Shown here piece after piece: positions 6,399 to 60,382 of a stretch of 64,000 nucleotides of DNA (its first letter is position 1; every line of letters begins with the position of its first letter). This DNA is from Paludibacteraceae bacterium (GTDB taxonomy: Bacteria; Bacteroidota; Bacteroidia; Bacteroidales; Paludibacteraceae). The DNA lies in contig JAKSNY010000004.1 in NCBI GenBank assembly GCA_024399495.1, positions 79,338 through 143,337 of the forward strand, in the 5' to 3' direction. Under the pieces are notes generated by a model. It searched no databases, was not told where the DNA came from, and saw only the letters and a list, made by a program, of their open reading frames with translations. The position numbers and the translations under genes are program-made.

Positions 6399-6534
6399 AT
6401 TAGTTGAAAGTTGAAAGTTGAAAGTTGAAAGTTAAAAGTTGACTGTGAAGCTGACCAAAGGTAAAATTTATACAAACGATTCCTCCCCTTGGGGGAGGTT
6501 AGGTGGGGCATTTTCAATTTTCAACTTTCAACTT
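6399..6534. repeat. Family A fold-back repeat, best-formed copy
   Basis: The left arm is a tandem of 7-bp units (GTTGAAA, about five). It is followed by a core module GACTGTGAAGCTGACC..AAGG (about 6440-6465), then a hairpin (CCTCCCCTTGGGGGAGG, about 6481-6497) with GTTAGGTGGGGCATTTT. The right arm is the inverted heptad array and ends exactly at the TonB-like stop codon (6535). The whole unit is self-complementary, like a small fold-back or MITE-like element. No open reading frame is inside. Confidence 0.8.
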
Positions 6535-7392
6535 TCAATTTAATATGTATTTATACGTTATAGTTCCGGTTTGAATTTGGGAACCGTTATTTGCATTGAA
6601 TTTTGCTTTTTTGGCTGCAAGTTCAGCCTCACGCCTTAAGGTTGCATCGCCAATGGTGGTACCCGCCGCTCCTGCCTTTGCACTTAACACCTTACCCGAT
6701 GGGTCAACCTCTATGGTGACAACAATGATTCCTGCCTCATTTCTGTTATACGCAGGTCTTGGAACACTCCCCACAATCTTTCTGCCAGACAAACTGTAAC
6801 TTGAGCCAATGCCGCCACCGTCTGTATAATTCTGTGCTCCAGGAGTGCCTGATACTACACCTTGATTACCTTCTCCACCTGCAATACCCTGATTTTTAGT
6901 GTTGTTATCAGTGCCCTTGCCAGCCGTTGAGCCTGCAAATGCGTTCTTTGCTGTAGAGGATGCTTTCTGTGCTTTAGCCTCTTTCTCTTTACGCTCCCTC
7001 TCCTGTTTTGCCAATAACTCCTTCTGTTTGCGAATCTCCTCTTGGCGTTTAAGTTCTTCCGCTTTCTTTCGCTCTTTCTCAGCCTTTACCTCCAAAGATT
7101 CCTCAATATCCTGTGTAACTTGGTCTTCAGGTATAGGAGGTGTAACATCGGGTGGTGATGCAGGCTCTGATGCGGAATTGTCCATTACGTCCTCTATGGC
7201 TGACATTGGGGCTGGCTCAAACAGACCTTCTCCCATATCATCTGTACCATAATCCACCTCCAAACCTGTCTCATCTTTTGGTACAACTGTACGCAGTCCC
7301 CAAAACAGTAAGGCAAGCAATAGCAGCAGGTGTACTGCGACGGTACCAACGATACCTGCTATCCTGTTATCGTTTTTCTTAAAGAAATTCAT
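6535..7392 (-). CDS. TonB-family energy transducer
   Basis: This inner-membrane protein spans the periplasm to deliver proton-motive energy from ExbB/ExbD to TonB-dependent outer-membrane receptors. The 285 residues comprise one N-terminal membrane helix (about 12-33), a charged Lys/Glu-rich linker (about 95-145), a Gly/Asn/Ser-rich linker, and a C-terminal TonB-like domain (about 205-285). It overlaps exbD by 4 bp, so this is a dedicated exbB-exbD-tonB set. The linker has few Pro-Glu repeats, unlike E. coli TonB, so a TolA-like role is an alternative. Confidence 0.85.
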   Translation of the reverse strand: MNFFKKNDNRIAGIVGTVAVHLLLLLALLFWGLRTVVPKDETGLEVDYGTDDMGEGLFEPAPMSAIEDVMDNSASEPASPPDVTPPIPEDQVTQDIEESLEVKAEKERKKAEELKRQEEIRKQKELLAKQERERKEKEAKAQKASSTAKNAFAGSTAGKGTDNNTKNQGIAGGEGNQGVVSGTPGAQNYTDGGGIGSSYSLSGRKIVGSVPRPAYNRNEAGIIVVTIEVDPSGKVLSAKAGAAGTTIGDATLRREAELAAKKAKFNANNGSQIQTGTITYKYILN

Positions 7393-7805: not shown

Positions 7806-8525
7806 TTACTTTATAGGTTCGTTAAGCAAATCCATAAACTCCATAGTCTTTAGCTCCATCTTTTGAACCACATTGTCCAATTTAGAAACCAAATAGTTAT
7901 ATGCAAAATATGCAACTATACCTACAATAAGACCTGCTACAGTGGTTATCATAGCGGTATATATACCATCAGATAACACTGTTATATCCACATTGTTACC
8001 TGCATTTGCCATATCAAAGAATGCCTGTACCATACCAAGTACAGTACCAAGGAATCCAAGCATAGGGGCGCCACCTGATATTGTGGCAAGCATTGTAAAG
8101 CCTTTCTCTAATTTAGTGGTCTCTATGTTACCAACGTTCTCTATGGCTACCAATACATCGTTCATAGGTTTGCCAAGTCTTGATATACCTTTCTCTATCA
8201 TACGTGCCGATGGGGTGTTTGTCGTTTGGCAAAGTTTGGTAGCAGACTCTATCTGCCCCTCTGTAATATAATCCTTTATGCGGTTCATAAAGTCCTTATC
8301 CTCTTTAGATGCCTTGTGTATTACAACAAGTCTCTCTATAAAGATATAAACCGCTATAATAGACAAGATGAGTAGTGGAATCATAATGGCTGGTCCACCT
8401 TTCATTGCCATATCCAAATAGTTCATCTCTACCACTTCAGGAGTGGCTTCTGCGGCAGCTTGTGCCGTGGATGCAATAGTATCCATACTTTGCACCGTAG
8501 TGTCTGTAATGATTTGTAGTAACAT
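7806..8525 (-). CDS. exbB: ExbB/TolQ/MotA proton-channel protein
   Basis: This is the channel-forming partner of ExbD, with three membrane helices (about 45-65, 145-170 and 190-215) and the MotA/TolQ/ExbB signature around GTVLGMVQAFFDMA. I place the start at the ATG complementary to 8523-8525 (MLLQIITDTTVQ), giving 239 residues. The open frame extends 30 codons further upstream, but that extension is translated family A repeat (MKMPHLTSPKGRNK...) and is not family-like. Confidence 0.9.
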   Translation of the reverse strand: MLLQIITDTTVQSMDTIASTAQAAAEATPEVVEMNYLDMAMKGGPAIMIPLLILSIIAVYIFIERLVVIHKASKEDKDFMNRIKDYITEGQIESATKLCQTTNTPSARMIEKGISRLGKPMNDVLVAIENVGNIETTKLEKGFTMLATISGGAPMLGFLGTVLGMVQAFFDMANAGNNVDITVLSDGIYTAMITTVAGLIVGIVAYFAYNYLVSKLDNVVQKMELKTMEFMDLLNEPIK

Positions 8526-8529
8526 AATA

Positions 8530-8635
8530 ATTGATAATTGAAAGTTGAAAGTTGAAAGTGAAAAATCATACAACTTGTTCCTCCCCTTGGGGGAGGTTAG
8601 GTGGGGCATTTTCAATTTTCAATTTTCAATTTTTA
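8530..8635. repeat. Family A fold-back repeat between exbB and pdxJ
   Basis: It contains left-arm heptads (GTTGAAA), the same hairpin as the 6.4-kb copy (CCTCCCCTTGGGGGAGG with GTTAGGTGGGGCATTTT), and a right arm of TTTTCAA units. It overlaps the 3' end of pdxJ: the last residues (KIEN) and the TGA stop of pdxJ are read from the repeat arm. Confidence 0.8.
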
Positions 8636-9341
8636 ATTGATTTAAGTATTGTTTAATAGTCTCTTTTAATCCTAAGTATAGAGCGTCCGATATTAGAGCG
8701 TGCCCTATGGACACCTCTGCAAGCGGCTGCACGTTTTTAGTAAACCAAGCCAGATTTACAAGGCTCAGGTCATGCCCTGCATTCACCCCTAATCCACAAC
8801 CCGATGCCACCTTTGCCGCCTCTGTAAAATCCTTTACGGCAGCCTCTTTGCCGTTGAGGTAGGCAGATGCGTAAGGCTCTGTATATAACTCTATTCTGTC
8901 TGTGCCTGTAAGGGCGGCGGCTTCAATTATATTACGGCGTGTATCTGTGAATATAGAGGTGCGAATGCCCGCACTTTTGAATATTTTAACTATATCTATC
9001 AGGAAATCCCTGTTTTTTATGGTGTCCCAACCAGCGTTTGACGTAAGAGCCTCAGGTGGGTCAGGAACCAGTGTAACCTGAGTAGGCTTAACCTCAAGAA
9101 CCAAGTCTATAAAACTCTTGCAAGGGTAGCCCTCTATGTTAAACTCTGTGGTGACAGCCTTGCTTAGCTCACGAACATCAGAGTAGCGGATATGCCGCTC
9201 GTCGGGTCTCGGGTGAACTGTAATACCTTGAGCGCCAAAACGTTCACAGTCAAGTGCCACTTGCAGAACATTTGGAACATTACCGCCTCTGGCATTCCTT
9301 ATGGTGGCAACCTTGTTTATATTTACGCTTAATTTTGTCAT
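8619..9341 (-). CDS. pdxJ: Pyridoxine 5'-phosphate synthase
   Basis: PdxJ condenses 1-deoxyxylulose-5-phosphate with 3-amino-2-oxopropyl phosphate in vitamin B6 synthesis. The start is the ATG complementary to 9339-9341 ([20 protein letters not shown]), giving 240 residues; a longer in-frame start 27 bp upstream lacks family support. Key segments are the N-terminal [26 protein letters not shown] with the catalytic-region His and Arg, and the phosphate loop INAGHDLSL-like VNAGHDL. The extreme C-terminus and stop lie in a family A repeat. Confidence 0.95.
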
Positions 9342-20057: not shown

Positions 20058-21884
20058 ATGAGAAAATTTACTTCTTTTCTGTTTTTACTATTAGTGTCAT
20101 TGTGCTGTTTTTCCGCTTTAGCGGTGGATATTCCTAAAGGAACATCCTATTATATAGCAGGAGACGGTAATGCACATGAGAACTGGTGTTGCGGGTTTTA
20201 TTGGAATCCTGCAGGTTGCAAACTTACAGATGACGGAATTTATGAGACTACGTTGAGTGCTGGAACATACTCTTTTAAAATAACAAAAGGCTCATGGAGT
20301 GTTGATTGGGGTTATGAGTCATTTAATTCGTCGCAATCAACGGTGAACTGTTATCCGGAGTTAAATAATGGTAATGTCATGTTTACATTGGATAAGGCAT
20401 CAAAGATTATTATATCATTCTCAGAGAACAATGGTATAATAGTGACAGAAGGCACTGCACCAACTCCTGTTACGTGTAATCCTTCATCGGGTACACTACC
20501 TGTAATGTATCTTAATACAGATTCGGGTAAAGAGATTACAGATGATGAGAATTATGTGCCTGCCACAGTCTATATTGACGCACTGGGAATAGAGGGATAT
20601 GAGTCTTTAGGTACAAAAGAGGAGCCGCTTGTTGCACAGACAAAGGGTAGAGGCAACTATACGTGGACTGGTTTTGATAAGAAGCCGTACGCACTTAAAT
20701 TTGATAAGAAACAAACGCCTCTTGGGCTTACAAAGGATAAGAGCTTTACACTTTTAGCACACGCTGATGATGAAGATGCGTTTTTGCGTAATACTCTTGG
20801 ATTTGCACTGAGCCGTGCTATGGGGCTTGCTTATACACCAGGGCAAGAACCGTTTGAATTATTTATTAACGGGGTCTATAGGGGAATTTATTTCCTGACA
20901 GACAAAATTAAGGTTAGTTCAAACAGGGTGCAGGTAACAGAACAGGAAGATGGTGAGACAGACCCGTCGCTTGTTACAGGCGGCTGGCTTCTTGAGATAG
21001 ATAACTACGATGAAGATGAGAGCGTGCAGTTCAGAATGGAGGAGAAAGATGGTGATATATTACGTGTAACAAGTAAATCTCCTGAGGTTATGTCTAAAGT
21101 GCAGTACGATTATATGTGGAACTACCTCTTTAACACCAATAAGACTATACAGCAGAGGGGTGATTTTGAAAAATATATAGATTTGGAGTCTCTTGTAAAC
21201 TTTTATATAGTGCAGGAGGTTATAGGTAATCATGAGTCTTTCCACGGCAGTTGCTATATGCATAAAGAGAGGGGCTCTAATACAAAACTTGAGTTTGGAC
21301 CTGTATGGGATTTCGGCTCATCGCTACATCGGACTCCAGGTTGGCATATATACGATATACCGCCTTGGGGTGATATATGGATAGATGATTTGGCTAAGTA
21401 CAAATCTTTCCAAGACCAGTGTAAGAAACGCTGGAATGAGGTAGGTGGCAATCTGTATTCCGCAGTTAAGACAGAGGCAGATGCCTTTATAGATAAGATT
21501 AATTCCGCCGCTCAGTGTGACTGCAAAAAGTGGCCCGAATACGGGAATCGCGGACTATATGATAAAAAGAGAGAGGTGCTGGATTATTTGTATGCAAGAA
21601 TCCAATGGCTTAATACAGAGTGGGGAACGCCATCTATAGATGACAATATAAGCAGTAATGGAGTTGATATATCAGTATATCCAACATTTACTACAGGAGT
21701 TATAAATATAGATGGGGCAGAGTCTCTTGCAGAAATCATAGTGACAGATATGAACGGAAAACTTGTGAGAACTCTTAATCCTGCTGAGTCTTCTTGGAAT
21801 CTGAATGTAGATAAGGGGTTGTATATTATAAAGGCTAAAGATGTGGACGGTAGTGCTCACACATCTAAGATAACAGTCCATTAA
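20058..21884 (+). CDS. CotH-like protein with type IX C-terminal sorting domain
   Basis: This is a predicted surface protein of 608 residues. I start it at ATG 20058 (MRKFTSFLFLLLVSLCCF), which gives a clean signal peptide; an upstream in-frame ATG would add 27 unlikely residues. A small beta-domain (about 25-135) resembling carbohydrate-binding modules precedes a CotH kinase-like domain (about 145-510) with KGRGNYTW, LLAHADDEDAFLRN and GPVWDFGSSL. The C-terminus (about 540-608; VYPTFTTGVINIDG ... KGLYIIKA) is a type A sorting domain, so PorU/PorV are likely its exporters. CotH-family proteins are atypical protein kinases in spores; the role here is unknown. Confidence 0.85.
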   Translation: MRKFTSFLFLLLVSLCCFSALAVDIPKGTSYYIAGDGNAHENWCCGFYWNPAGCKLTDDGIYETTLSAGTYSFKITKGSWSVDWGYESFNSSQSTVNCYPELNNGNVMFTLDKASKIIISFSENNGIIVTEGTAPTPVTCNPSSGTLPVMYLNTDSGKEITDDENYVPATVYIDALGIEGYESLGTKEEPLVAQTKGRGNYTWTGFDKKPYALKFDKKQTPLGLTKDKSFTLLAHADDEDAFLRNTLGFALSRAMGLAYTPGQEPFELFINGVYRGIYFLTDKIKVSSNRVQVTEQEDGETDPSLVTGGWLLEIDNYDEDESVQFRMEEKDGDILRVTSKSPEVMSKVQYDYMWNYLFNTNKTIQQRGDFEKYIDLESLVNFYIVQEVIGNHESFHGSCYMHKERGSNTKLEFGPVWDFGSSLHRTPGWHIYDIPPWGDIWIDDLAKYKSFQDQCKKRWNEVGGNLYSAVKTEADAFIDKINSAAQCDCKKWPEYGNRGLYDKKREVLDYLYARIQWLNTEWGTPSIDDNISSNGVDISVYPTFTTGVINIDGAESLAEIIVTDMNGKLVRTLNPAESSWNLNVDKGLYIIKAKDVDGSAHTSKITVH

Positions 21885-24800
21885 ACCTTTATAACTTCCA
21901 GATTCTCAAAATAGTAAATGTAGCCGGTTATATTATTGTAGCCGGCTTCTTTATATAGAGCCATATAGTTCTGTACCTGTGATATGTGCTTCTTTTCTTT
22001 TGCCTCACCAAACTTGTAATCCACTATGGTAACTTCCCCTTCAGACCCGATGATAACCCTGTCTGGTCTCCACGTGTGATGATTCTTAATTATGCTGCGT
22101 TCAGAGAGAATGCGGTTTTCTGTATTAAACCACTCTCTTACGGCAGGGTTTAGAATATATGAGGTTAGGTCTTCTTTTAGTTCTTTCTGCTGTTCTTCTG
22201 TAATATAACCATGGTCTGCCATGTCTTGCAGCACAGGTGCCAAATCATCAATAGTCTTAATATGTTCCATTACCCGATGCATACGGCTACCACGCTCTAT
22301 CTCAGGCGTTATGGCATCATCAGAACGCAATTTAAAGTGTTGCAGTTTCTCAATGGGGGAAATGTCAGTTGATAATTGAAAATTGACTGCGGAGCTGACC
22401 GAAGGTAAAATTGAAAATTGAAAATTATCGGTGGGCTGCGAAGCTGACTGAAGGTAAAGTGGACTGTTTCCATTTTCAATTTTGCATTTTCCACTTTCAA
22501 TTTTTTGCATGCTTGCATGCAAAAGCGGCAGCGTGCTTTTGAATGTCTTGTTCTCCGCATCTTTCATCGGGTCTGTTTTGGTGGTCTGGCAATAGCCTAT
22601 AAGCACCTCTTTGGCACGCGTAAAAGATACGTATAGGGCATTTATATTGTCAATGTATAGTTTCAGGGTCTCATCGTAGTACTGTTCACGGAAAATAGTA
22701 TCTTTCAGCGTGTCGGAAAACTCTATAGGCACGCATTTAAGTTCCTCATACAGCGGGTTGCCGTCCGGAATCTGCTCCCACAGAATATCCCTATGCAGAG
22801 AATTTGTAAAACTCCAATTCAGCAGCGGCATAATAACCACCTTGTATGACAAACCTTTAGACTTATGCAGTGTGGTTATTGTAACCGCATCCGCCTCAGA
22901 GGCTGTAGTAAGGTTGGCGGAATCCTTTATCTCTTTCCACCACTCTAAAAATGAGTGAATATCAGAGCCGTTACGTGATATATAGTCCATCACCAAATCC
23001 TTAAAGGCACTAAGATACGGCTTTGCATCGTTGTCGTCATTATATCCCGATGTGTAGATTATCTGCTCCACAATCTCATACAGAGGCAGTTTGGATAGTG
23101 ATTCCAAATCAATCTCCTGACCGGCGTATATTATATTTTCAACTAAAAAGTTGTTTACAGGGTTATTCCTGTCAATAATATATCTGAGTATCGCCGTTAT
23201 ATCCTGTACAGCATTACACGATGCCACCTTCAGAGCCTCCTCCGATATAACCTTAACCCCTTTATCAAGCAAATATTCAGCCACAGCGTCCGCCTCACGG
23301 TTCTTGCGTACAAGTATGCCTATATCGCTGTATTTGTAGCCGTTGGATAGTAACATCTCTATATCGGCGTACATCTTGTCAAAAGCGGCAAGTTTGGCGT
23401 CACTGCCACGCTCATTTTCTATAAACTCAATGTTTACATAACCTTTTCCACGTAGGCTTTCATCGGGTAATTTCTGCACTATATCCTTATAGGCATCTGT
23501 AATAGTGGTATTATCAGCTCTTCCAGATTGCTTGCAATAGTAGTCCTGAAGCTTCTCCGCCATAGCCTTAAACAAGGTGTTGTTAAACTCTACTATATTG
23601 CCAAGACTACGGTGATTCACATCAAGGGTCTTAGGTTCAGCAAATGCCTTAAACTGTTCGTCTTCAAGTATCTCCTTGCCAAGAATAGACCAGTCTGAAT
23701 CACGGAAACGGTAAATGCTCTGTTTTACATCACCCACTATAAGGTTATCGAATCCCTCGCTTAAACTATTGCTTATCAGTGGCTTAAAATTATCCCATTG
23801 TATATGTGACGTATCTTGAAACTCATCTATAAGAAAATTATCTATATAGGTGCCTGTTTTCTCATATATAAAAGGTGTGTCGCTTCCGTCTATTATTCTC
23901 TTTATAAACTCACCAGAACGGCTTAGCAGTTGGGTGTTTTCTCCCTTTACATTGCTATTAACCTCATTTTCAATAAGTTTAAATAATCTAAAGTATTTGA
24001 TGTTGTGTAAAATAACATTGCAAGTATTAAACGTGCGGCGGTTGCTCTCCACAAAGTCTATAAAATCGGTGATGCGGTGATTCGGTGATGATTCACTCCT
24101 AAACTCCTTAACTCCTTCACTCCTAAACTTTAATATCGTGGGGTTTAGGGTTGGCAGTGCATCTGTGTTGTTTATGGTGTCGTAGAGTGGCGTTAATGCA
24201 CCACGTGGAAAATCGGCTTTTGTAAGCCCTTCGCTTTTAATGAGTTCTAAAACATGCTCTGCCTTGCTCTGTGCCTCTTCTAAAATGGATTTTCTTAATG
24301 TCTGCAACTCTTTGGCTTTACGGCGTATTGTGTCGTCATCGGGTAGTAGATGCTTAACCCTATTATAGCGTTCCATAAAAATCTCCTTGCTTATACCCTC
24401 TATGCTCTCTATAATTTGTTGGAAATTTATTTTATCGCCATCAGCCTCTTCTATCTGCTCGCTAAACCAATCCATAAAAGGTGCGTATTTGCCTTCATCA
24501 AGGTGTACCATTATGTTGTTTATGGTATTTGAAATCACACGCTGCACATCTAACTCCACATTGTAATTGCTGTTTATGCCCAATTCTCTTACAAATGAGC
24601 GTATTATCTGCTGAAAAAACTTATCTATGGTGGTTACTCTGAAATAAGAATAGTTTTGCAGAATGGCAATCAATAACTCCTTTGCCTTGCTTGGTTCCAA
24701 CATTTTTCCAGCCACCATTACAGGCTTGTCGCTTTTTGAAATCTCATAAAGTTTACTTGTTATCCTGCCTTTCATCTCATCTGTAGCCTTGTTGGTAAAG

Positions 24801-24934
24801 GTTACGGCAAGCACATTGCGGAACTTGTTTGGATTGCCGTCTTTGGTATTCATAAGCATACCTATATACTGCTCTGTAAGCGTATATGTCTTGCCACTGC
24901 CGGCGGAGGCTCTGTAGATGTTAAGTTTCCCCAT
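21881..24934 (-). CDS. RecB/AddA-like UvrD helicase with C-terminal nuclease
   Basis: This 1017-residue superfamily 1 helicase probably processes double-strand breaks. Walker A is ASAGSGKTYTL near residue 10. Helicase motifs follow (AVTFTNKATDEMKGR, FLIDEFQDTSHIQW, VGDVKQSIYRFRDSD, TLHKSKGLSYKVV, ALYVSFTRAKEV). The C-terminal PD-(D/E)XK nuclease has TIVDYKFGEAKEK. Its usual AddB-type partner is not adjacent. Two repeat-derived segments are translated in frame: residues about 270-290 (family C) and about 805-857 (family A). The stop overlaps the convergent CotH stop in a shared TTAA. Confidence 0.92.
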   Translation of the reverse strand: MGKLNIYRASAGSGKTYTLTEQYIGMLMNTKDGNPNKFRNVLAVTFTNKATDEMKGRITSKLYEISKSDKPVMVAGKMLEPSKAKELLIAILQNYSYFRVTTIDKFFQQIIRSFVRELGINSNYNVELDVQRVISNTINNIMVHLDEGKYAPFMDWFSEQIEEADGDKINFQQIIESIEGISKEIFMERYNRVKHLLPDDDTIRRKAKELQTLRKSILEEAQSKAEHVLELIKSEGLTKADFPRGALTPLYDTINNTDALPTLNPTILKFRSEGVKEFRSESSPNHRITDFIDFVESNRRTFNTCNVILHNIKYFRLFKLIENEVNSNVKGENTQLLSRSGEFIKRIIDGSDTPFIYEKTGTYIDNFLIDEFQDTSHIQWDNFKPLISNSLSEGFDNLIVGDVKQSIYRFRDSDWSILGKEILEDEQFKAFAEPKTLDVNHRSLGNIVEFNNTLFKAMAEKLQDYYCKQSGRADNTTITDAYKDIVQKLPDESLRGKGYVNIEFIENERGSDAKLAAFDKMYADIEMLLSNGYKYSDIGILVRKNREADAVAEYLLDKGVKVISEEALKVASCNAVQDITAILRYIIDRNNPVNNFLVENIIYAGQEIDLESLSKLPLYEIVEQIIYTSGYNDDNDAKPYLSAFKDLVMDYISRNGSDIHSFLEWWKEIKDSANLTTASEADAVTITTLHKSKGLSYKVVIMPLLNWSFTNSLHRDILWEQIPDGNPLYEELKCVPIEFSDTLKDTIFREQYYDETLKLYIDNINALYVSFTRAKEVLIGYCQTTKTDPMKDAENKTFKSTLPLLHASMQKIESGKCKIENGNSPLYLQSASQPTDNFQFSILPSVSSAVNFQLSTDISPIEKLQHFKLRSDDAITPEIERGSRMHRVMEHIKTIDDLAPVLQDMADHGYITEEQQKELKEDLTSYILNPAVREWFNTENRILSERSIIKNHHTWRPDRVIIGSEGEVTIVDYKFGEAKEKKHISQVQNYMALYKEAGYNNITGYIYYFENLEVIKV
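22365..22524. repeat. Family A fold-back repeat inside the helicase coding region
   Basis: The segment has heptad arms (TTGAAAA units on the left, inverted TTTTCAA/CTTTCAA units on the right) around two copies of the core module (GACTGCGGAGCTGACCGAAGG at about 22382-22402 and a variant at about 22436-22456). At the right edge is a perfect 10-bp inverted repeat TTTTGCATGC/GCATGCAAAA (22503-22524). It is read in frame on the minus strand as residues about 804-857 of the helicase, between helicase motif VI and the nuclease domain. Confidence 0.8.
24065..24128. repeat. Family C octamer array inside the helicase coding region
   Basis: Eight 8-bp units are contiguous: ATCGGTGA, TGCGGTGA, TTCGGTGA, TGATTCAC, TCCTAAAC, TCCTTAAC, TCCTTCAC, TCCTAAAC. 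They encode residues about 270-290 (KFRSEGVKEFRSESSPNHRI) on the minus strand without breaking the frame. Unit sequence and total length (64 bp) match the intergenic array at 11631-11694. Confidence 0.75.
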
Positions 24935-30037: not shown

Positions 30038-31528
30038 ATGGAAAGGTTTTTAGTATTGCCGCTCATTATATTGGTGGCGTTAGCATCGTGTAAGAAAAAC
30101 AATAACGGGAAGGAGCTTACAGAGAGTCCTGAACTTGTTTCTGCTAAGATTAGTGAGATAGGGGATACTTTTGTTAAATTTAAGGTAGCGGGTGTTGACC
30201 AAAACGGAGATGCCACCACTAAGTTTGTAGTTGTGTTTCCATTACAAAAAGAGATTGGAGAAGTGGAGTGTGAGGTAGATGATAAGGGAATAATTGGGGT
30301 TGAGGGGCTTACACCTAACACAAACTATTTTGTAGGCATATTTACAAAAGACAGATGCAATAATGTATCGTACAATAGCGAGGACATAAATTTTACCACA
30401 TCTGGACCTAAAACAGTAACATTGGGTGCTGTACAGGGCGGTACGGTAAAGATGTTTTATAAGGGAGAGGAACTAAAATCGGGTGAGACAGTGCCACAAA
30501 ACTCTTACGTAACGGTAGAGGCAGTGGCAGACGATTACCATTTGTTCAGTGGCATCAATATATATAAAGGTGTGGCGGTGCGTGACTCTTTTAAAGTAAC
30601 AAAAGATACTACCGTAGTGGCGGAGTTTACTGCTGTAGATGCGTTGCCTGCTACAGATAAGTATAAGGTTTGTAACTACAATATAAGGCTATATACTGAG
30701 GACGATAAAAAAGACAAACATTGGACAAATCGTAGGAGTTATCTGTTTAAAATGATAGAGAAACACACAATGGATGTGTGTGGGTTAGAGGAGATGACAC
30801 CACAGCAAGCACCTGATTTTGAGAAAAATATGCCTGATTATGAGTATGTGGGCTATGGCAGGGATAACGGCAAGGCATACGGAGCAGGCAGTTCAGGAGA
30901 GCAGACAGGCTTGGTATATAACAAACGCCATTTTGTAAAACAAGACCAAGGCAGATTCTTCCTTTCTAACACCCCAAATAAACCCTCAAAGGTTAGCGGA
31001 GCATCATTTAACCGCATGGTTACATGGGTGAAACTAAAAGAGCGTAAATCAGATGTTATATTCTATTTCTTTGCCACCCATTTTGACCACCCTACAAACC
31101 AAACAGGTATAAACACACGTTCTAAAGAGGCCGATATAGCACTTGTAGAGGTGCCTAAAATAGTGGGGAATAATCCTATGTTCTTTGTGGGTGACTTTAA
31201 TTGCCGTCCAGAAGAGCCTGCATATCAAAAACTTGCAGCCCAATGGAAAGACTCATTCATAACTATGGGCGATAAGGCACAGGGAGGCTATGTTTGCAAC
31301 GATGCTCAACTTGCACGTCCAGGACTACAGGCAGACTGTGCCTGCAAGGGCAATACATACACAGGCCTGTATAACGTAAATGACTCATTGCCTAAGCGTA
31401 TAGATTTTGTACTATATAATGAGGTTCATGCATATCCTATATCTTACATTGCAGATGGTGACAATATGGGACACACCACACTGCCATCAGACCATGTGCC
31501 GGTGGTTACAGAGATGGTTATTAAATGA
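30038..31528 (+). CDS. Lipoprotein with fibronectin-like and endonuclease/exonuclease/phosphatase domains
   Basis: The 496-residue lipoprotein has lipobox ALASC, Cys18. Residues about 30-128 resemble a fibronectin type III domain (GLTPNTNYFVGIFTKD). Residues about 130-205 are another small beta domain. Residues about 210-496 are an EEP (DNase I/AP endonuclease-like) domain with the catalytic sequence of NYNIRLY, GLEEMTPQ, ATHFDHPT, VGDFNCRPEEPAY, RIDFVLY and SDHVPVV. Surface location suggests extracellular phosphodiester or phosphate ester hydrolysis, for example nucleic acid or phospholipid scavenging. Its TGA stop lies in a family B array. Confidence 0.87.
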   Translation: MERFLVLPLIILVALASCKKNNNGKELTESPELVSAKISEIGDTFVKFKVAGVDQNGDATTKFVVVFPLQKEIGEVECEVDDKGIIGVEGLTPNTNYFVGIFTKDRCNNVSYNSEDINFTTSGPKTVTLGAVQGGTVKMFYKGEELKSGETVPQNSYVTVEAVADDYHLFSGINIYKGVAVRDSFKVTKDTTVVAEFTAVDALPATDKYKVCNYNIRLYTEDDKKDKHWTNRRSYLFKMIEKHTMDVCGLEEMTPQQAPDFEKNMPDYEYVGYGRDNGKAYGAGSSGEQTGLVYNKRHFVKQDQGRFFLSNTPNKPSKVSGASFNRMVTWVKLKERKSDVIFYFFATHFDHPTNQTGINTRSKEADIALVEVPKIVGNNPMFFVGDFNCRPEEPAYQKLAAQWKDSFITMGDKAQGGYVCNDAQLARPGLQADCACKGNTYTGLYNVNDSLPKRIDFVLYNEVHAYPISYIADGDNMGHTTLPSDHVPVVTEMVIK

Positions 31529-31557
31529 TGTATGATGTATGATGTATGATGTATGAG
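31526..31557. repeat. Family B heptamer array (GATGTAT)
   Basis: Four to five tandem GATGTAT units overlap the stop codon of the upstream lipoprotein gene (TGA at 31526-31528) and end 15 bp before the DUF59 gene. Confidence 0.8.
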
Positions 31558-31912: not shown

Positions 31913-32647
31913 ATGGAAACCGAGCAATCCTTTATATATCATCTGCGTGGCAAATTCTCTAAGGCGTTGAAAGATTATGCCTTGATAGATGACGGCGATA
32001 AGGTTCTCATCGGGTTATCGGGTGGAAAAGACAGCCTTGCCTTAGTGGATTTCTTTGCTGAAAGGATGAAAATCTTCAAGCCTAAGTTTACTGTTGAGGC
32101 GGCACACATTATTGTAAGGAATATACCGTATCAGTCAGACATTGAGTATCTGAAAAACTATTGTAACAGTTTTGACATACCTCTGCATATAGTGGAGACG
32201 GAATTTGACCAATCTACAGACACACGTAAGTCTCCTTGTTTCCTCTGTTCCTGGAACAGGCGTAAAAAGTTGTTTGAGACAGCATCTGAGTTAGGTTGCA
32301 CTAAAATAGCATTGGGGCACCATCAAGATGACATTATTGAGACTCTGCTAATGAACCTTACGTTTCAGGGGGCTTTTGCCACTATGCCTCCTCTACTGAA
32401 AATGAATAAGATGGAGTTCTCTATAATACGTCCGCTATGTCTTATCAAAGAGAGTGAGTTACAGCAGTTTGCATCAATTAAAGGCTTCAGAAAACAGATT
32501 AAGAACTGCCCGTATGAGAATGACTCCAACCGTGCCGATATGAAAGCCGTACTTTCAGAGTTGGAAAAACTTAACAAAGATGCCCGATACAGCATTTGGG
32601 GAGCGATGCAAAATGTGCAAGCAGAATATTTACCAAAAAAAAGTTAA
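31913..32647 (+). CDS. ttcA: TtcA-like tRNA 2-thiocytidine synthase
   Basis: This ATP-dependent tRNA thiolase of 244 residues adds sulfur to C32 in tRNAs (family function). The PP-loop SGGKDS is at 36-41. The cluster-binding Cys109 and Cys112 lie in KSPCFLCSWNRRKK, and a third Cys in KNCPYEND completes the TtcA pattern. LGHHQDDIIETLLMNL is the conserved mid-domain. The final residues (KKS) and TAA stop run into a family A repeat, so the native C-terminus may be changed. Confidence 0.9.
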   Translation: METEQSFIYHLRGKFSKALKDYALIDDGDKVLIGLSGGKDSLALVDFFAERMKIFKPKFTVEAAHIIVRNIPYQSDIEYLKNYCNSFDIPLHIVETEFDQSTDTRKSPCFLCSWNRRKKLFETASELGCTKIALGHHQDDIIETLLMNLTFQGAFATMPPLLKMNKMEFSIIRPLCLIKESELQQFASIKGFRKQIKNCPYENDSNRADMKAVLSELEKLNKDARYSIWGAMQNVQAEYLPKKS

Positions 32648-32785
32648 AAGTTAAAAGTTGAAAGTTGAAAGTTGAAAGTTTTTTGTATCTTTGCATTTTG
32701 TTATAGAACTTATAACTTTCAATTTTACTTTCAGTCAGCTAACGCAGTCAATTATCAATTTTCAATTATCAATTTTCAATTATAA
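32644..32785. repeat. Family A fold-back repeat upstream of mutA, carrying a promoter
   Basis: The left arm is AAAAGTTGAAAGTTGAAAG heptads. The core module appears in reverse orientation (CAGTCAGCTAACGCAGTCAA, about 32730-32750), and the right arm is ATTATCAATTTTCAATTATC units. The element overlaps the ttcA stop and ends just before the mutA ATG; the mutA promoter lies inside it. Confidence 0.75.
32664..32693 (+). promoter_or_regulatory. Promoter of mutA-mutB within a family A repeat
   Basis: TATCTTTG (32686-32693) is an exact -7 box. GTTG at 32664-32667, part of a heptad unit, lies 18 bp upstream in the -33 position. The repeat therefore seems to supply half of the promoter. Confidence 0.55.
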
Positions 32786-34660: not shown

Positions 34661-34662
34661 TA

Positions 34663-34735
34663 TGAATTTTTGGAATAGCGAGCGAAGAACAAACTTGTTT
34701 GTTATTCCGAGTCATGACAAAAATCTATGCGAAGC
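34663..34735 (+). repeat. Family D palindromic repeat between mutA and mutB
   Basis: It contains TTTTTGGAATAGCGAGCGAA, the palindrome ACAAACTTGTTTGT, then TTCCGAGTCATGACAAAAA and ATGCGAAGC. It is highly similar to 51243-51305. The ATG within its right edge (34727) is in frame with mutB but is not the likely start. Confidence 0.75.
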
Positions 34736-42298: not shown

Positions 42299-42329
42299 TG
42301 ATGTATGATGTATAATGTATGATGTATGA
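42299..42329. repeat. Family B heptamer array
   Basis: GATGTAT-type units, one changed to AATGTAT, begin 9 bp after the operon gene 6 stop and run into the terminator stem. Confidence 0.8.
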
Positions 42330-42382: not shown

Positions 42383-44044
<1,662 letters not shown>

Positions 44045-44062
<18 letters not shown>

Positions 44063-51239: not shown

Positions 51240-51242
51240 TAT

Positions 51243-51305
51243 GAATTTTTGGAGTAGCGAGAGCAGAACAAGTTTACTTGTTATGCCGAGTCACGACAAA
51301 AAGGC
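51243..51305 (+). repeat. Family D palindromic repeat between the RND pump and the PII-like gene
   Basis: TTTTTGGAGTAGCGAGAGCA, the palindrome ACAAGTTTACTTGT, and ATGCCGAGTCACGACAAAAA. It is closely similar to 34663-34735. Confidence 0.75.
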
Positions 51306-60347: not shown

Positions 60348-60382
60348 ATGTATGATGTATGATGTATGATGTATGATGTATG
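60348..60382. repeat. Family B heptamer array at the nth start
   Basis: Five tandem ATGTATG/GATGTAT units follow a small palindrome (ATGTACAGGAGTACAT, 60334-60349). The array includes the nth start at 60366. Confidence 0.85.

What the first reader, a model, noticed from the sequence alone, without database searches (positions are those of the whole stretch)
22365..22524. A fold-back repeat element is translated in frame inside the helicase-nuclease gene
The same element that sits in intergenic gaps (7-bp arms, GACTGC..GAGCTGAC core, inverted arms) occurs within the RecB/AddA-like gene, with two copies of its core. It is read through without a stop as about 53 residues rich in Ser, Asn and Gln (NSPLYLQSASQPT, LPSVSSAVNFQLST) between helicase motif VI and the nuclease domain. 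Rickettsia palindromic elements are the known precedent for selfish repeats accommodated inside proteins; this sequence family is unrelated to them as far as I can judge.
Basis: partly seen in the sequence, partly recalled or inferred. Interest (0 to 1): 0.82.

Follow-up and report, generated by a model that had tools for sequence, protein, structure and literature searches.

The report
Repeat DNA translated as protein linker
In a gut bacterium of the Paludibacter family, short repeat DNA that usually sits between genes is also found inside conserved genes, where it is read through in frame and seems to serve as a spacer between parts of the protein.

Summary
Window 22365-22524 is a fold-back composite of 7-bp repeats (TTGAAAR) with two 21-bp cores, read without a stop on the minus strand as residues ~804-857 of a RecB/AddA-like helicase-nuclease, between motif VI and the nuclease domain.

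The core occurs at least 27 times in this 2.08-Mb genome. Four copies lie in frame in three homology-supported genes (RecB-like x2, DNA polymerase I, an Ig-like lipoprotein); 23 were judged to lie outside genes.

Other genes are cleaner. In the lipoprotein and a GldF-GldG protein, orthologues lack the repeat between conserved flanks. In DNA polymerase I, 9 of 16 genus orthologues carry 7- or 8-bp arrays in one interdomain region, with units that differ between most species. All 27 in-gene arrays found by a scan of four genes have period 7 or 8, none 5, 6, 9, 10 or 11.

Best reading: dispersed 7/8-bp repeat modules, which in genes survive where orientation, frame and position allow. They work like Rickettsia palindromic elements and TAACTGA heptamers but are neither. 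New variant of a known kind. How they spread is not shown.

The parts
21881..24934 (-). RecB/AddA-like helicase-nuclease gene, 1017 aa (P0001), host of the element
   Evidence: dN/dS against sister G010 outside the linker 0.13
22365..22524 (+). Composite fold-back repeat, read in frame on the minus strand as residues ~804-857
22369..22384 (+). Heptamer arm (TTGATAA TTGAAAA)
22385..22405 (+). Core copy 1, GACTGCGGAGCTGACCGAAGG; shared with the G010 orthologue
22411..22426 (+). Heptamer arm (TTGAAAA)2
22434..22454 (+). Core copy 2, GGCTGCGAAGCTGACTGAAGG; absent from the G010 orthologue
22470..22507 (-). Degenerate inverted heptamer arm
22503..22524 (.). Small perfect hairpin TTTTGCATGC-TT-GCATGCAAAA at the edge of the composite
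24068..24124 (-). Second in-frame repeat of the same gene: octamer arrays of the GGAGTTTA and GAATCACC kinds, residues ~270-289
   Evidence: G010 has a longer GAATCACC array there, L022-L025 none by the scan
6402..6540 (.). Intergenic composite: heptamer arm, core, CCTCCCCTTGGGGGAGG hairpin, inverted arm
   Evidence: same element in G010 with two heptamers fewer
8527..8638 (.). Fold-back composite without core; G010 has only two heptamers at this place
   Evidence: it overlaps the TTG-start end of ORF 7806-8615, a start I take to be wrong
32639..32781 (.). Composite with a core variant, filling the gap between two genes

Best explanation
The segment is dispersed repeat DNA that has become the interdomain linker of a RecB/AddA-like enzyme under purifying selection. 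The genus carries a stock of short repeat modules: heptamers TTGAAAR, GATGTAT and AGGGTCA, octamers GAATCACC and GGAGTTTA, a ~28-bp core that sits in heptamer phase, and hairpin modules. Arrays grow and shrink by whole units, and modules are exchanged between sites. Most copies lie between genes. A copy in a gene survives if it lies in the orientation without stops, if its net length keeps the frame, and if it falls where length is tolerated, mostly between domains. In RecB the ~50-residue linker is now almost wholly repeat-derived; it is tolerated as a spacer whose exact sequence is little constrained. Shown: sequence identity with intergenic copies, open frame, one-strand openness, position, turnover between sister species, purifying selection on the rest of the gene. 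Inferred: neutrality of the peptide, and growth by replication slippage. Not shown: how copies reach new sites, or that the protein is made.
For: Core in at least 27 places of the genome, 4 in homology-supported genes. All 4 genic copies lie in the permissive orientation; in 25 of 25 core copies tested the other strand has 0 open frames (the 2 copies outside that pattern were not in this test). DNA polymerase I of this genome has the core inside an array where sister G010 has only heptamers; the difference is 27 bp, in frame. The Ig-like lipoprotein has two in-frame inserts that G003 lacks between conserved flanks, and at both places G002 has the GAATCACC octamer instead. GldF-GldG: octamer in G000, heptamer AGGGTCA in G010 at the same join, no array by the scan in the other 14 of 16. 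DNA polymerase I: 9 of 16 genus orthologues with arrays, all in one interdomain region; codon shuffles give 0. All 27 in-gene arrays in four genes have period 7 or 8, as do all 16 window arrays. RecB dN/dS 0.13 outside the linker, 0.70 within.
Against: RecB orthologues at ~50% identity have linkers of similar length, so a clean insertion cannot be shown in this gene. The array scan, at its threshold, does not pick up the short heptamer arms of 22365-22524 themselves. The linker dN/dS rests on 57 codons that are partly unalignable, the shared core on 22. Not every insert is plainly in a linker: in DNA polymerase I the Pfam exonuclease match starts at profile position 43, so the repeats may have replaced the front edge of that domain; in two MurF-type proteins the insert follows a Mur_ligase_M match that stops short of the profile's end; a second MurF insert appears to lie inside the N-terminal domain. 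Draft genomes only. No expression data.
Confidence: 0.84

Rival explanations
1. The arrays arose in place by slippage of low-complexity linker DNA; nothing was copied in from elsewhere.
For: Copy number does change by whole heptamers at one site (4 against 2), and these protein regions tolerate length change.
Against: The same units and the same 21-bp core recur at unlinked sites. Periods are 7 or 8, not a multiple of 3 as codon-tolerated slippage would favour. One polymerase linker holds two octamer families, a heptamer array and the core together.
Confidence: 0.06
2. The composites are MITE-like transposons moved by a transposase acting in trans, and the genic copies are ordinary insertions. 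This is a mechanism of spread and is compatible with the main reading.
For: Inverted arms, stable folding, and a near-empty site in G010 for the 8527-8638 composite.
Against: No fixed ends or clear target duplication were seen; arms vary by heptamer number and inner modules vary. A Y1/RAYT transposase was found in 2 of 16 genus genomes and not in G000, which is 82.5% complete. Other transposase families were not searched.
Confidence: 0.3
3. The linker peptide is a selected functional segment, for example a binding motif.
For: The peptide LP(S/P)VSSAVNFQLST occurs in both RecB and the lipoprotein.
Against: DNA polymerase I reads the core in another frame. The sister species has other modules in most of the linker. 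dN/dS in the linker is 0.70. No NCBIfam model matches the linker peptide at E up to 10.
Confidence: 0.06
4. Assembly artefact: repeat-driven misjoin of contigs.
For: The genomes are drafts, at least G010 a metagenome bin, and repeats cause misjoins.
Against: The frame is open through unique, orthologous flanks in separate genomes. The distal core is shared by the orthologue of a separately deposited horse-faeces bin.
Confidence: 0.03

Closest known systems
Rickettsia palindromic elements (RPE)
   Same: Repeats in and between genes; in-frame insertion into unrelated metabolic genes (PMC10969869, passages read; PMC2635572, passages read)
   Different: RPEs are ~150-bp units each encoding a conserved peptide. 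Here the units are 7-8 bp with a ~28-bp core, the length is not fixed, the core is read in more than one frame, and several families alternate at one site. No RPE-domain match (that NCBIfam holds such models is recalled).
TAACTGA heptamer repeats of Beggiatoaceae, Cyanobacteria and some Bacteroidetes, including Paludibacter (PMC4679880; sections 9 and 15 and passages read)
   Same: Heptamer arrays, mostly intergenic; stops in all frames on one strand, open on the other; some copies inside ORFs in the open orientation; indels in 7-nt steps
   Different: Unit differs, and TAACTGA pairs are absent from the stretches held here. In that paper most ORF-internal copies are in hypothetical proteins or at protein ends, one being in a variable region of an RNA polymerase beta-prime-like protein. 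Here they are inside conserved enzymes, with cores, hairpins and octamers. At start codons it is the open strand that abuts the ATG, not the stop-bearing one.
BrickBuilt MITE of Porphyromonas gingivalis (PMC4596501, outline and abstract seen)
   Same: Tandem repeats inside an inverted-repeat element in a relative within Bacteroidales (order recalled)
   Different: 23-nt unit, always intergenic
QMITE1/2 of Coxiella (PMC5896051, passages read)
   Same: Small repeats that sometimes overlap ORFs or sit in them in frame
   Different: MITEs of 150-400 bp with direct repeats, in another phylum

Membership tests
Rickettsia palindromic elements | In-frame insertion into unrelated protein genes as well as intergenic copies | tested here: met
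Rickettsia palindromic elements | Unit of ~150 bp encoding a conserved peptide | tested here: not met
   No fixed unit; RecB and lipoprotein share a peptide, DNA polymerase I reads the core in another frame
Rickettsia palindromic elements | Match to RPE sequence families | tested here: inconclusive
   0 NCBIfam hits for the 66-aa linker peptide at E up to 10; that RPE models are in the library is recalled, not checked
TAACTGA heptamer repeats | Unit TAACTGA in tandem | tested here: not met
   0 tandem pairs in 304,832 bases of G000 (window plus 43 stretches); the rest of the genome was not tested
TAACTGA heptamer repeats | Stops in all three frames on one strand, translatable on the other | tested here: met
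   0 open frames on one strand in 25 of 25 core copies, mean 1.2 of 3 on the other
TAACTGA heptamer repeats | Stop-bearing strand directly upstream of start codons | tested here: not met
   ATG within 40 nt: stop-bearing strand 7 of 87 arrays, open strand 33 of 87
REP/RAYT elements | RAYT (Y1) transposase in the genome | tested here: not met
   PF01797: 0 in G000 (82.5% complete); found in 2 of the 16 genus genomes
MITE | Terminal inverted repeats | tested here: met
   Inverted heptamer arms in many composites
MITE | Target-site duplication and fixed ends | tested here: inconclusive
   One near-empty site compared; flanks are themselves heptamers, so a duplication cannot be read
BrickBuilt | 23-nt tandem unit, strictly intergenic | tested here: not met
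   Periods 5-11 scanned: window arrays are of period 7 or 8, and copies lie inside genes; a 23-nt period was not scanned for
Rfam families | Match to a described RNA family | tested here: not met
   Only MIR8675 at E 0.099, far below its gathering score, window 5000-33000

The most novel reading that the evidence does not exclude
The genus has a genome-wide traffic of 7- and 8-bp repeat modules that keeps rewriting interdomain regions of core proteins. The same region of DNA polymerase I, GldF-GldG, the lipoprotein and RecB is occupied by different repeat families in different species. Sequence there would be set by repeat DNA and filtered only for frame, orientation and tolerated length, and an existing array would act as a landing pad that makes these sites recurrent targets.
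Probability: 0.43. Interest if true: 0.75.

Novelty: new variant of a known kind. Interest (0 to 1): 0.62.

Why it matters
Repeats inside bacterial proteins are known chiefly from Rickettsia and from scattered heptamer and MITE cases. Here tiny non-triplet repeats recur in the interdomain regions of replication, repair and envelope proteins within a gut genus. Different families occupy the same site in different species, so insertion, exchange and loss could be ordered on a tree. That would make the question of how dispersed repeats become protein sequence directly testable. It also warns that such regions will mislead alignment and annotation.

Tried and rejected
Considered and dropped. (1) A 301-aa ORF around the core at C12:194561 (L071) and a 234-aa frame at C13:32424 (L241) were counted as non-genic: both look spurious and have 0 Pfam hits at E up to 0.1. 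(2) Arrays in long open frames of L069, L081, L179-L182, L185, L187, L189, L194, L195 and L197 lie upstream of the likely start codon and were not counted as genic; in L183 and L188 a stop falls before or within the hit. (3) The idea that an octamer array had fused gldF to gldG was rejected: the fusion is a single open frame of 764 aa or more in 15 of 16 genus genomes (G004 has a shorter frame with a stop inside the match), and 14 of 16 have no array. (4) RAYT mobilisation: not supported. (5) Known RNA family: none. (6) Looser-pattern core hits in G009, G002:C2 and G003:C23 (3 of 10 outside G000) have no heptamers around them and lie in long frames of the other strand; taken as chance. (7) Paper searches for a described Bacteroidales case of 7/8-bp repeats in protein linkers brought only the TAACTGA paper as a near case; one search listed 15 of 26 papers. 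Most subscription papers are not in that library, so absence from print is not claimed.

Limits. In-gene counts are lower bounds: the peptide searches list only part of their matches, and the 20 stretches (plus two already held) were chosen mostly for long open frames. That the other 23 core copies lie outside genes rests on the absence of a long open frame through them, on a start codon just downstream, or on a frame without Pfam match, not on homology of the surroundings. Polymerase ORFs of L206-L215 were cut by locus ends. The dN/dS is a pairwise NG86 estimate. GldF-GldG had no codon-shuffle control. Structure prediction did not run.

Full report
What is there. The gene at window 21881-24934 (minus strand, 1017 aa) is a RecB/AddA-like helicase-nuclease with UvrD helicase domains and a PDDEXK_1 nuclease. 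Between motif VI (FTRAK, residues 771-775, motif name recalled) and the nuclease match (from 866) lies the stretch 22365-22524. It is built from heptamers TTGA(A/T)A(A/G), two copies of a 21-bp core, a degenerate inverted heptamer arm and a small perfect hairpin at its edge. Read on the gene strand it gives residues ~804-857. On that strand two of three frames are open; on the other strand none is. As single-stranded DNA it folds better than all of 200 shuffles (z -3.7).

The same family elsewhere. In the window's genome (G000, 2.08 Mb, 26 contigs, 82.5% complete) a heptamer triple gives 95 hits at up to two mismatches and its reversed control 74. The reversed pattern is (TTAAAAG)n, itself a unit of these arrays, so this count says little. 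The core is cleaner: 11 hits against 0, and 25 against 1 with a looser pattern. The two lists together hold 27 places. Four lie in homology-supported genes: RecB x2, an Ig-like lipoprotein and DNA polymerase I (the last two both on contig C23). The other 23 were judged to lie outside genes: no long frame runs through them, or a start codon follows, or the frame has no Pfam match. Intergenic copies are composites of heptamer arm, core, a CCTCCC-GGGAGG hairpin module and inverted heptamer arm, in varying combinations. In the 16 genus genomes the strict core is found in 4: G000 11, G010 2, G003 1, G002 1. The looser pattern gives G010 5; its single extra hits in G009, G002 and G003 look like chance. 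In G002 and G003 the core stands beside a different heptamer, CTCATTT.

RecB orthologues. All 61 genomes searched have a match to the protein, though a few matches are short or to other helicases. The linker is variable in every full orthologue aligned. G010, at 87% identity and from a Paludibacteraceae bin of horse faeces, shares the distal core (LPSVSSAVNFQLSTD). The rest of its linker is made of other modules: a GGAGTTTA octamer array and a unit GATCTTTCGCTACGCTCAAGATGACGG that also sits between genes in G010. L022, L023 and L025, at about 50% identity, have linkers of similar length without arrays; L024 (G002) has a different heptamer array there (FQLSIVNCQLS). What is met is that the linker is repeat-made and turns over. 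Outside the linker G000 and G010 differ with dN/dS 0.13 (945 codons), within it 0.70 (57 codons, partly unalignable). A second in-frame repeat of octamers lies at residues ~270-289 of the same protein and is longer in G010. Of 15 genus orthologues scanned 3 have an array (G000, G010, G002).

Cleaner sites in other genes. The Ig-like lipoprotein (Pfam Big_5) of G000 has two in-frame repeat inserts, one of heptamers and hairpin, one with the core. G003 lacks both between conserved flanks, although both species keep an ACTCC octamer-like stretch beside the first. G002 has the GAATCACC octamer (ESPNHRIT) at both places. By the array scan 2 of 9 genus orthologues are positive. The GldF-GldG protein has an octamer array in G000 between the NCBIfam GldF and GldG matches (a weaker Pfam membrane match runs across it), a different heptamer array in G010, and no array in the other 14 of 16. 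DNA polymerase I has arrays in 9 of 16 orthologues, all between the 5'-exonuclease domain and the exonuclease/polymerase part. The units differ: TGTCAAC (G001), CACTGTC (G003), GGAGAAA (G002), two octamers (G012), octamers plus TTTCAAC shared by G000 and G010, and others. In the six-species group of G000 the repeats may also have replaced the front edge of the exonuclease-like domain, whose Pfam match starts only at profile position 43. Between G010 and G000 the polymerase linker differs by one core set in the array, 27 bp, in frame. Further in-frame octamers: in an LD-carboxypeptidase between its two Pfam domains, in a LysM protein before a LysM match, in a DUF4292 lipoprotein before its domain, in an HU-like protein behind its domain, and in two MurF-type proteins behind an incomplete Mur_ligase_M match, one of them with a second insert that appears to lie inside the N-terminal domain. 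Outside the genus 0 of 15 RecB and 0 of 6 lipoprotein orthologues scanned have an array; these are ones for which loci were held.

Why this is repeat DNA and not a protein domain. A scan for tandem periods 5-11 found 27 arrays in the orthologues of four genes, 8 of period 7 and 19 of period 8, none of another period. In the window it found 16, thirteen of period 7 and three of period 8, with none in five block-shuffled windows. Codon shuffles gave a mean of 0.0 for every RecB, polymerase and lipoprotein sequence. The scan's threshold misses the two-unit arms of the 22365-22524 element itself; its case rests on the core and on pattern matches. Periods that are not multiples of three do not arise by simple codon slippage under selection. 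In 25 of 25 core copies the non-permissive strand has no open frame, and the genic cores use the other strand.

How it changes. Comparing G000 with G010 over the window's 5-20 kb part shows one composite conserved except for four against two heptamers, one composite in G000 where G010 has only two heptamers, and one gap holding different modules in the two species. This points to slippage by whole units plus exchange or insertion of modules. The enzyme that moves them, if any, is unknown. A Y1/RAYT transposase was found in 2 of 16 genus genomes and not in G000, and no clear target duplication was seen.

Relation to what is known. Rickettsia palindromic elements are the best functional analogue, but fixed size and conserved peptide are not met. 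The TAACTGA heptamers share period, one-strand openness and some ORF-internal copies, and occur in Paludibacter, but the unit is absent from the stretches held here and the orientation at start codons is the opposite. BrickBuilt is intergenic with a 23-nt unit. I therefore file this as a new variant of a known kind: dispersed repeats tolerated inside proteins.

Noticed in passing
window and L051-L093 (G000): Heptamer arrays are oriented at gene ends. Read as CTTTCAA they end within 40 nt before an ATG of a 100-codon frame in 33 of 87 arrays (31 of them at 2-14 nt), read as TTGAAAR in 7 of 87; a stop adjoins the array start on the TTGAAAR strand in 27 of 87 against 11 of 87. Some composites thus fill a gap from stop to start. 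A role in translation initiation is possible.
   Followed up: partly
window 31525-31556, 42299-42329, 44034-44061, 60348-60382: A second heptamer family, GATGTAT, forms arrays between or at the edges of genes in the downstream half of the window.
   Followed up: no
window 34661-34723 and 51240-51302: A 63-bp repeat, 86% alike, with an internal inverted repeat around ACAAACTTGTTTGT, just downstream of genes.
   Followed up: no
L178 and orthologues L270-L285: GldF and GldG, separate models in NCBIfam, are one open frame in 15 of 16 genus genomes, with the repeat at the join in G000.
   Followed up: partly
L095 (G003) and L227 (G002): The strict core stands beside CTCATTT heptamers instead of TTTCAAC in these two species, as if core and array unit can be combined freely.
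   Followed up: no
L192 (G013): A MurF-like protein carries two repeat-derived segments, one beside the peptide STLRQAQGPE, which I recall as a product of a widespread CTTCGACAGGCTCAGG-type repeat.
   Followed up: no
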